This document shows positions 28,901 to 31,900 of a DNA stretch of 64,000 bases, in pieces. The translations under genes and the position numbers were made by a program. Source of the stretch: Tetracentron sinense (lineage: Eukaryota; Streptophyta; Magnoliopsida; Trochodendrales; Trochodendraceae); NCBI GenBank assembly GCA_015143295.1, contig JABCRI010000994.1, positions 1-64,000 of the forward strand, given 5' to 3'. The notes beneath the pieces are model-generated. The model searched no databases. It was not told where the DNA came from and saw nothing but the letters and a program-made list of their open reading frames with translations. How positions within the stretch are numbered: position 1 is the stretch's first letter; each line of letters begins with the position of its first letter.

Positions 28901-31900
28901 GTTGGGATGAGACATGATGGTGGAATGATGAAATCCACATCTATACGGAGTACTGGTTTCTGGAAGTCCAATGGAGCTGAGGCCGCGGCTCTTTCATGAG
29001 GGATATAAAACAAACATCCAACAGGCCGCACCGAGAAGATCTACATCAGAATTCACCCGCGATAGAATGATCCTAAATCATAAGATAAATTCTTTCCGGA
29101 TATATAGAAAGATGTTAAGCAAATGGCCTTATGAAAAATAATATAAAAGATGGCTACAATCATATGATCAGGGTAATCTTGACCTAGTATCTACCAGGTC
29201 GGCCCCCCAAAACGATAGTGGGCTTGAGTCGACCTCGTCCATTGGTAGACGTGACATCATGCCTTACCCATGGCTGAAAAATGACTCCTTGTGTGTGTTA
29301 CATCTCACGTATGCACACATATCTATATGGGCGTGCATAAACGTGCATGTCCTGCATTTTACGCCACATGTAGAGGGATCCATATAAGATACCCAAATCT
29401 GCTCAAGAAAAGGATAAAAGTAAAACAAGAACCCAACTAGTCTACTCATTAAATTGGTCCCAGCTGGCTACTGAAGGCATTGAGAAAACAAATATATTCA
29501 TTGAAAGGCATAAAACTTGGACACTGAAATGTTCATTTTTTTCCAAACTTGGTTGTCTTTCTAAAATGATTTTCACTCACCAGCTTTTGAAAACAAGGGT
29601 ACCAAACTAACATAATTGGAAGGAATGACAAGATGGGTGTACTTACTCCTACGAGTTAATAAAGACTCCCACAAGCGAGTTGCCTTGGAAACCAAATGCG
29701 ACTTCTGACCTAAGGAACTAGAAACGCGGTCATCCCACAGATCCCCTTCCAACTTCACTTCGTTCCTCAAGTCCTGTAGTTTCTCCAGCTCTTGCTGCAG
29801 ATAAGCCTGACTTACAGGAGGTGAGAAAAATAAGAACAATATATATAACCACAGCAATATAAAAAGTCTGGTATCAGTTAAAACTTAAAACTGAAGTCCC
29901 TCAAAGGAACAAGGAGTAAAGCTCTACTTCTTCAGCACAAAGACCACGAAACTCAGCAGTCATTTCATGAGCCAAGTCGACCACATAGCTTGTCTATGGA
30001 CAGCTGTATCTGCATTTTTAAGAAACTTTCTTCGCTCGAGTGCTATTCTAGCCTGTTTAACACAAAACGCTCGAGTCAGAGTCACTGAAGGTTATCAAAG
30101 GTGCTTTTGAAGTTTTGAAATAAAAAAATAATTGCTAATAAACTAATAAGCAGATATAATAAAGAAAAGGGTTATAAAATGCAGATATGAACTTTTTTTT
30201 TGAACCACCTTCTGATCATTAGAACAGTGAACTATCACACACATAATTTCGAGGAGACACCAAATTGCCACTAAAAGAGAAACTTAATATTGGCATGAAG
30301 AACAAGACTGAAACAACAATATTTATTTGTCGATCTTCCTACAAGACAGGTGTTTAAAAAGAGGGGGGGGGTAAAAAAAAAAGTAACCAGAATAAAAAGC
30401 ATGAAATGTAAAAAAGTAACATGAAAAATAGTTCATTGAACATAATAAGAAGACCGAATAATCACTGTACCCATAATTACCAAGTACGGGTACAAGTATA
30501 TACAGCAATGATCCATTCGGGAAGTACGGGTGTTATACAGTAAAACACGGCAAAAGAACGGGAAATTTAAAAAATAATTAATAATTATAAGTAAATAAAA
30601 GTTATGATATTAACTAATAACAATCATTTAAGACGGAATATGCGTTTAACACAGTAAAAGTACGGAAAAGTATGCATATTGTATGCGTTTAACACAGTAA
30701 AAGTACGGAAAAGTATGCATATTGTACGCGTTTAATACGTAATTCACGTATTAAACGGGTATTATATGGCAATACGGGTATAATACATAACACGACAAAA
30801 ATACGCAGTTTTAAATGGCAAACCCCCCTAAAAGTATTATACGGGTACTATATACCATTGTTACAAATCTCCCGAGAAATATCCAATTTCTCCCAAGAAA
30901 AATCTAAAGTTTAAAACTCCGTTTTATCATGATATTTTAAAAATCTCACGAGAAATATAATTTTCTATTTTTATCCCATAATATCACGTATTTTAACCAA
31001 TATTTTCAAAATATCATGAGAAATACACAATGTTGTTGGTTTTATGAATTTTAACTTTGTGATATTTATTACTATTTTCTATAATTTTAATATATTTCTT
31101 TAATCATTGCCGAGATTTAGGCGAGAAATACCCGAAAAAAATTCAGATTTTAAAATCTCCCGAGAAAAACTTCAACCGATAAAAACCCGAGAACGAGATT
31201 TGTAATACTACTATATCGGGTATAATACGGGTGTTTGGTAACTATGATTGTACCTTTGTCACAGGAAGTAATGTAGCTGCCTGTGAAAATGCTACATCTG
31301 TCAACGAAGCAGGGAGTGGGTTAGAAGCTACATCAGCCGCAAACGTACGTCTATGAACCTCTCGCAAAGCATGCAAAGAAAGTTGCCACAAAAGTTCAAT
31401 AAATCTGCAGTCACGATGTGAAACTTATTTTTCAGTTCAAGTATGCCAATAATCACAATCCTCCAATGCATGTATTAAGGACATCGATGAGGCACAGAGC
31501 TAATATGCAATTTTCAAAAAGAAATACAAAAGATAAATGTTGGGAAAAAATGAAATTTTAAAAAGTTAAACGTTAGAATGCAAATATTAATAACAAGAAA
31601 AACTTAAACTCCAAGAAGGAAAGCCTTATTGTGGCCTTTCTGATCTTCCACTGTGCAGATTTCTTTATCTAGTTCGTGATAGTGCTCCATTACTTGCAGA
31701 ATATGACCGTAAAACACAAATACAGATGATCGGATGCATCCAAGACTTGGGATAGCATAAGAAGGATATGACCCAAATTAAGCAAACAATGTATAGGACT
31801 CCCAAATCTGCTTGGGATTTTTCTGAGAAAAAAGATAGAAACTCAATCATGTATTTCAAGTTAACAAATATATATTATACAACATTTCTTTCTTTTCTTT

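What the first reader, a model, noticed from the sequence alone, without database searches (positions are those of the whole stretch)
30464..31254. hAT element whose target duplication copies a splice donor
The 775-bp element in AUG6 entered at the exon 4/intron 4 boundary. The 8-bp duplicated target (attgtacc; on the gene strand ggtacaat) contains the last exon base and the GT donor. One copy still serves exon 4; the other (ggtacagt) lies at the far side of the element. The insertion therefore duplicated a 5' splice site and may have stayed harmless for that reason. Use of the distal copy would add the element to the mRNA.
Basis: partly seen in the sequence, partly recalled or inferred. Interest (0 to 1): 0.75.

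Follow-up and report, generated by a model that had tools for sequence, protein, structure and literature searches.

The report
Nested MITEs beside a splice donor
Two ordinary plant DNA-transposon remnants, one inside the other, sit seven bases into an intron of a cell-division gene, and the insertion left a spare copy of the intron's start signal on the far side; it is a neat but expected accident that the gene appears to have tolerated.

Summary
At 30472-31246 an insertion lies at the end of exon 4 of AUG6 (augmin subunit 6, minus strand), flanked by 8-bp target duplications ACTGTACC and ATTGTACC (7 of 8), both containing the last exon base and the GT donor. The two paralogues found in the genome lack it. 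Correction: it is not one 775-bp element but a 412-bp outer MITE with a 355-bp MITE of another family inside it (30856-31210), which has its own 8-bp duplication (6 of 8). Both families make hAT-type 8-bp duplications. In the twin assembly copy (C10) exons 4-6 are open, with dN/dS to the paralogues of 0.12-0.21. The gene-side donor keeps its exon context (AAG|GTACAA, 6 of 9 consensus matches); the duplicated donor on the far side is weaker (TGG|GTACAG, 4 of 9), though another GT in the far 8-mer also scores 6 of 9. Read-through meets a stop codon 9 nt past the exon. Most likely exon 4 still splices from the gene-side donor and both MITEs leave with the intron; no RNA was available. Roughly one such hit is expected by chance, and no enrichment at strong donors was seen. 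New example of a known kind, low interest.

The parts
31254..31404 (-). AUG6 exon 4 (encodes FIELLWQL...LLPVTK)
   Evidence: Frame conserved in C10, C18 and C23; continuous VTK-ARI in the PDB AUGMIN subunit 6 chain
31247..31254 (-). Target-site duplication, gene-side copy (ATTGTACC; gene strand GGTACAAT): last exon base plus the GT donor at 31253-31252
31242..31244 (-). First in-frame stop (TAG) if exon 4 is not spliced at 31253; it lies in the terminal repeat of the outer MITE
31219..31246 (+). Outer MITE, right piece (28 bp), ending TTGGTAACTATG
   Evidence: Alignment with family copies; end position
31211..31218 (+). Target duplication of the inner MITE, right copy (CTATATCG, 6 of 8)
30856..31210 (+). 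Inner MITE, 355 bp, ends CATTGTTACAAATC / GATTTGTAATACTA; repeated family with 8-bp duplications
30848..30855 (+). Target duplication of the inner MITE, left copy (CTATATAC)
30472..30855 (+). Outer MITE, left piece (384 bp, including the left copy of the inner element's target duplication), beginning CATAATTACCAA; family consensus 371 bp
30639..30742 (+). 43-bp tandem repeat (2.4 copies) inside the outer MITE; one reason that it is longer than the family consensus
30464..30471 (-). Target-site duplication, far copy (ACTGTACC; gene strand GGTACAGT), with a GT at 30470-30469 in the context TGG|GTACAG (4 of 9) and a second GT at 30465-30464 in the context ACA|GTGATT (6 of 9)
30053..31253 (-). AUG6 intron 4 as it stands (1201 bp; 418 bp without the 775-bp insertion and one 8-mer)
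   Evidence: Exon 5 start from the conserved ARIALERR frame; lengths counted from the coordinates

Best explanation
A non-autonomous hAT-type MITE inserted by cut-and-paste into the exon 4/intron 4 boundary of one AUG6 paralogue. The staggered cut spanned the last exon base and intron bases +1 to +7. Gap repair copied these 8 bp to both sides, so the gene-side copy kept the full donor with its exon. To the spliceosome this is an intronic insertion at +8. A second MITE of another family later inserted into the first. Exon 4 still splices from the gene-side donor to exon 5 and both MITEs leave with the intron; the far copy of the donor is a relic whose use would give a truncated reading frame. 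Shown here: the anatomy, the nesting, the empty paralogous sites, the open frames in C10, the stop codon. Inferred: which donor is used in RNA, and that the insertion was tolerated.
For: The ends and 8-mers are where stated. Both paralogues found lack the insertion; their donors read GTCCTGT and GTCTTGT. The outer family's end pattern has 3226 matches in the genome against 24 for the control pattern, and 21 of 27 scored copies have duplications matching at 7 or 8 of 8. Nesting: among the 42 matches listed for the whole insertion (40 of 4481 first-look candidates were scored) only the window and its twin C10 match end to end; the 38 distant copies match only the inner part. 27 of the 28 outer copies aligned could be measured and are 357-415 bp long, that is without an inner element. 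The inner copy is 6.5% from its consensus and the outer 9.8%, fitting inner after outer. Gene integrity: exons 4-6 open in C10, dN/dS 0.207 and 0.118 to C18 and C23. The proximal junction gives the VTK-ARI continuity seen in the PDB chain. Duplicated donor 6 of 9 on the gene side against 4 of 9 on the far side. Stop 9 nt past the exon on read-through.
Against: No RNA evidence was available. The gene-side donor is itself weak: six other GTs on the gene strand between 31253 and 30464 tie with it at 6 of 9, five of them in the elements and one (30465, ACA|GTGATT) in the far 8-mer, so that count does not single it out. The gene-side copy has lost that second GT through its one base change. The window copy has a 1-bp deletion in exon 5 that breaks the frame; C10 does not, so I read it as an assembly error, which is not proven. 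dN/dS covers time before as well as after the insertion. Only exons 4-6 were compared across paralogues. The inner element's own duplication matches at only 6 of 8.
Confidence: 0.85

Rival explanations
1. A donor on the far side (30470 or 30465), or a cryptic donor in the element ends (for example TTG|GTAATT at 30480), is used in a fraction of transcripts. It adds element sequence with an immediate stop codon and so lowers AUG6 output from this paralogue through nonsense-mediated decay.
For: The native donor is weak (6 of 9), and GTs at 30480 and 30465 reach the same simple count; read-through meets a stop 9 nt past the exon. Two other paralogues could buffer a loss.
Against: The far copy of the donor itself scores only 4 of 9. 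The C10 exons 4-6 remain open, with low dN/dS to the paralogues. No RNA evidence.
Confidence: 0.1
2. This AUG6 copy is a decaying pseudogene, so the insertion was tolerated because the gene no longer matters.
For: The window copy has a 1-bp deletion that shifts the frame in exon 5.
Against: The twin copy on C10 lacks that deletion. In the alignment around the insertion the two copies have 1244 identical positions, 0 substitutions and 7 single-base gaps, a pattern that I take for long-read consensus error. Exons 4-6 of C10 are open, with dN/dS 0.207 and 0.118.
Confidence: 0.05
3. The two 8-mers resemble each other by chance and 30472-31246 is not a transposition unit.
For: One of the 8 positions differs between the two 8-mers.
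Against: The ends coincide with family ends found 3226 times against 24 for the control; mismatched left/right pairings reach 7 of 8 in only 2 of 702 cases; the paralogues show the empty site.
Confidence: 0.01

Closest known systems
hAT-derived MITEs of plants
   Same: Short, inverted ends, 8-bp duplications with T at position 2 and A at position 7 favoured, many copies (3226 matches to the outer family's end pattern)
   Different: Nothing essential seen; I searched no repeat library, so these two families have no names here
Transposon insertion into AGGT giving new introns (model reviewed in PMC3443670, passages read; the maize Ds case, Giroux 1994, seen only in its reference list)
   Same: A target duplication that copies splice-site letters
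   Different: That model makes a new intron inside an exon, with donor and acceptor both from the duplicated AGGT. Here the intron already existed, the 8-mer does not include the A of AGGT, and the far copy supplies no AG acceptor
Introners (PMC9860276, passages read)
   Same: MITE-like elements in which splice sites can be recruited from the target duplication
   Different: Introners create introns across a genome; this is one insertion at an existing donor, and I saw no enrichment of a strong donor motif beside the ends of either family, on small counts

Membership tests
hAT superfamily, non-autonomous (MITE), outer element | 8-bp target-site duplication | tested here: met
   21 of 27 scored copies match at 7 or 8 of 8 against 2 of 702 control pairings; 1 of 28 aligned copies could not be scored
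hAT superfamily, non-autonomous (MITE), outer element | Terminal inverted repeats | tested here: met
   30472-30492 and 31226-31246 are 76% complementary over 21 nt; family ends CATAGTTACCAA on both sides of many copies
hAT superfamily, non-autonomous (MITE), outer element | Target bias nTnnnnAn (recalled as typical of hAT) | tested here: met
   T at position 2 in 27 of 46 letters, A at position 7 in 25 of 46 (both 8-mers of the 23 copies matching at 6 or more)
hAT superfamily, non-autonomous (MITE), outer element | A hAT transposase element with the same ends in the genome | tested here: inconclusive
   None of the 30 hAT-dimerisation-domain loci fetched holds CATAGTTACCAA exactly; 1709 first-look candidates, 150 scored, and flanks of 1.5 kb only
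hAT superfamily, non-autonomous (MITE), inner element | 8-bp target-site duplication and inverted ends | tested here: met
   14 of 19 rows match at 7 or 8 of 8 against 1 of 342 control pairings; the window row has 6 of 8, L017 6, L018 4, and L012 and L022 have 2 each, apparently because my script misplaced their right ends
Introner | Insertion creates a new intron | tested here: not met
   Both paralogues end exon 4 at the same codon with a GT and continue at the same exon 5 without the element
AUG6 / HAUS6 (host gene) | HAUS6_N domain and match to augmin subunit 6 | tested here: met
   Joined exons: Pfam 92.6 bits against a cut-off of 26.4 (single exons stay under it); PDB AUGMIN subunit 6 at E 1.7e-119

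The most novel reading that the evidence does not exclude
The duplicated splice site is functional: a far-side GT, or a cryptic donor in the MITE ends beside it, has been kept as a regulated alternative that switches this augmin paralogue off through an immediate stop codon.
Probability: 0.05. Interest if true: 0.5.

Novelty: new member of a known kind. Interest (0 to 1): 0.22.

Why it matters
It is a clean worked example of how a transposon hit on a splice donor can be tolerated: gap repair of the staggered cut re-creates the donor on the gene side whenever the duplicated 8 bp reach far enough into the intron. It carries its own controls (two empty paralogues in the same genome) and could be checked with a few RNA reads. 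It does not change any general picture.

Tried and rejected
Enrichment test. I asked whether a strong donor motif is over-represented beside the ends of the two families. Outer: AGGTRAG within 6 nt of the end, 4 matches (that tool's own control, the whole pattern read backwards, gave 1) against 3 for the letter-reversed motif (two of these three show the same letters on C7 and C222 and may be one locus twice). Inner: 0 against 1. No enrichment, but the counts are small and the test would miss weak donors such as this one.

A family search for HAUS6_N in the whole genome found nothing; the tool itself warned that this does not show absence.

I looked for other copies of the two families in the window by their ends with up to 2 mismatches. 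Beyond the insertion itself, seven isolated outer-end-like 12-mers turned up (1-2 mismatches) and no inner-end-like one; I saw no second pair that would make a complete copy.

Literature: five listings on the splice-site question and one on the likely species; passages read from PMC9860276, PMC7709256 and PMC3443670. The general idea that target duplications copy splice letters is in print. I saw no paper on this locus in these listings, and none of the searches named AUG6.

It is now told, and I moved the odds for that reason: best explanation 0.87 to 0.85, alternative-donor rival 0.08 to 0.10, novel case 0.04 to 0.05.

Full report
What is there. On the plus strand the window reads ACTGTACC (30464-30471), an insertion from CATAATTACC (30472) to GGTAACTATG (31246), then ATTGTACC (31247-31254). 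The host gene is on the minus strand. Its exon 4 (31254-31404) encodes FIELLWQL...LLPVTK, and the next exon continues ARIALERR. The solved augmin subunit 6 chain has LLPVTKARI without a break, so the exon ends at 31254 and the donor GT is 31253-31252. The gene is AUG6. The two copies differ at one base. At that base (gene strand +6) the far copy has G, as do both paralogues counting from the exon end, so the gene-side copy is probably the one that changed.

It is two elements. A search with the whole insertion had 4481 first-look candidates, of which 40 were scored, and listed 42 matches. The window and C10 match it end to end; two short minus-strand rows are internal palindromic matches in these same two loci; the 38 distant ones match only between positions 361 and 744 of 774. 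Alignment of 18 of these 38 shows common ends, CACTGTTACAAATC...GATTTGTAACACTG, and different flanks with 8-bp duplications. In the window this inner element is 30856-31210, with CTATATAC and CTATATCG beside it (6 of 8). A search with the left part (30472-30850) found another family (2341 first-look candidates, 40 scored) with ends CATAGTTACCAA and a consensus of 371 bp. An IUPAC pattern for its ends has 3226 matches genome-wide with up to 2 mismatches, against 24 for the reversed control. Of 28 copies aligned, 27 could be scored and 21 have 7 or 8 matching bases of 8; mismatched pairings reach that in 2 of 702. The outer element without the inner one and its extra 8-mer is 412 bp, longer than the consensus in part because of a 43-bp tandem repeat at 30639-30742.

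Empty sites. A search with exon 4 gave four matches: the window (contig C218, 562 kb), C10, C18 and C23 (contig length). C10 carries the same insertion. In the alignment around it C218 and C10 have 1244 identical positions, 0 substitutions, 6 bases missing in C218 and 1 missing in C10, so C218 looks like a redundant copy of the same locus rather than independent evidence. In a second alignment the script counted 1095 identical positions, 2 substitutions, 5 bases missing in C218 and 97 in C10; the tail of C10 was misplaced at the end of that alignment, so I rest nothing on the substitutions and the 97. C18 and C23 have no insertion: acaaag|GTCCTGTTTTATTATTCC and acaaag|GTCTTGTCGAATATTCC. dS is 0.28 (C10-C18), 0.36 (C10-C23) and 0.22 (C18-C23) over 144 codons, which fits old whole-genome duplicates. 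The genome (1.16 Gb in 1479 contigs; the contigs between C1 and C24 whose lengths I saw, all but C17, are 33-65 Mb; lengths of C25 to C217 not seen) resembles Tetracentron sinense, for which 24 chromosomes, 1.07 Gb and two such duplications are reported (passages of PMC7709256). The species name is my inference.

Timing. The outer copy differs from its consensus at 9.8% of aligned sites and the inner at 6.5% (consensus from 24 of 28 outer copies, leaving out L039, whose right end is missing, and L040, L041 and L045, which lie in the other orientation; and from 18 inner copies, the window's left out). Medians of the copies are 6.7% and 5.6%. This fits inner after outer, and outer after the split from the paralogues. 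I give no date in years.

How it works. A hAT-type cut is staggered by 8 bp, and repair copies the 8 bp on both sides (established knowledge, recalled). Here the 8 bp reach to +7. The gene-side copy therefore keeps the exon context and all of +1 to +6: AAG|GTACAA, 6 of 9 matches to MAG|GTRAGT. The far copy keeps the GT but has lost -3 and -2 to the element: TGG|GTACAG, 4 of 9. For splicing, the insertion is an intronic one at +8. Against a simple reading: six other GTs between the two sites also score 6 of 9, five in the elements (31131, 30949, 30855, 30747, 30480) and one in the far 8-mer (30465, ACA|GTGATT), whose counterpart on the gene side is gone through the one base change. If the gene-side donor were skipped, the frame would read ...VTKVQS and stop, with the stop beginning 9 nt after the exon end, in the element's own terminal repeat. 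Exons 4-6 in C10 are open with dN/dS of 0.21 and 0.12 to the paralogues, so the gene looks functional, with the caution that this ratio also covers time before the insertion, and that exon 5 of the window copy itself is frame-shifted by one base that C10 has.

How surprising. If the outer family has about 1600 copies (half of 3226 ends) and the genome about 130,000 donors (32,690 genes as given for T. sinense in the passage seen, times about four introns per gene, recalled), then the 7 placements of an 8-bp window over a GT in 1.16 Gb give about 1.3 expected hits for this family alone. This is an estimate by hand that ignores insertion preference and selection. A strong donor motif is not enriched beside either family's ends (4 against 3; 0 against 1).

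What could not be tested. There is no RNA, no sister species and no repeat library in the tools I used. Which donor is used remains an inference.

Noticed in passing
29976-29978: Exon 5 of AUG6 in the window lacks one base that C10, C18 and C23 have; it shifts the frame. Probably an error of this contig.
   Followed up: partly
27731-28294: Tandem duplication with a spacing of 285-287 bp: 192 nt at 95% identity and 54 nt at 96% identity.
   Followed up: no
30480 and 30465 (minus strand): The terminal repeat of the outer MITE carries a donor-like TTG|GTAATT, and the far 8-mer a second GT, ACA|GTGATT; both score 6 of 9, as the native donor does.
   Followed up: partly
Window, 29407-31450 (contig C218, 562 kb): The stretch compared repeats C10 around 41.73 Mb almost letter for letter, with mostly 1-bp gaps: perhaps a redundant or haplotype contig. 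The rest of the contig was not compared.
   Followed up: partly
L033 (C18) and L034 (C23): At least three AUG6 paralogues (C10, C18, C23) with exons 4-6 open; all three have a weak intron 4 donor (5 of 9 in C18 and C23, counted by eye).
   Followed up: partly
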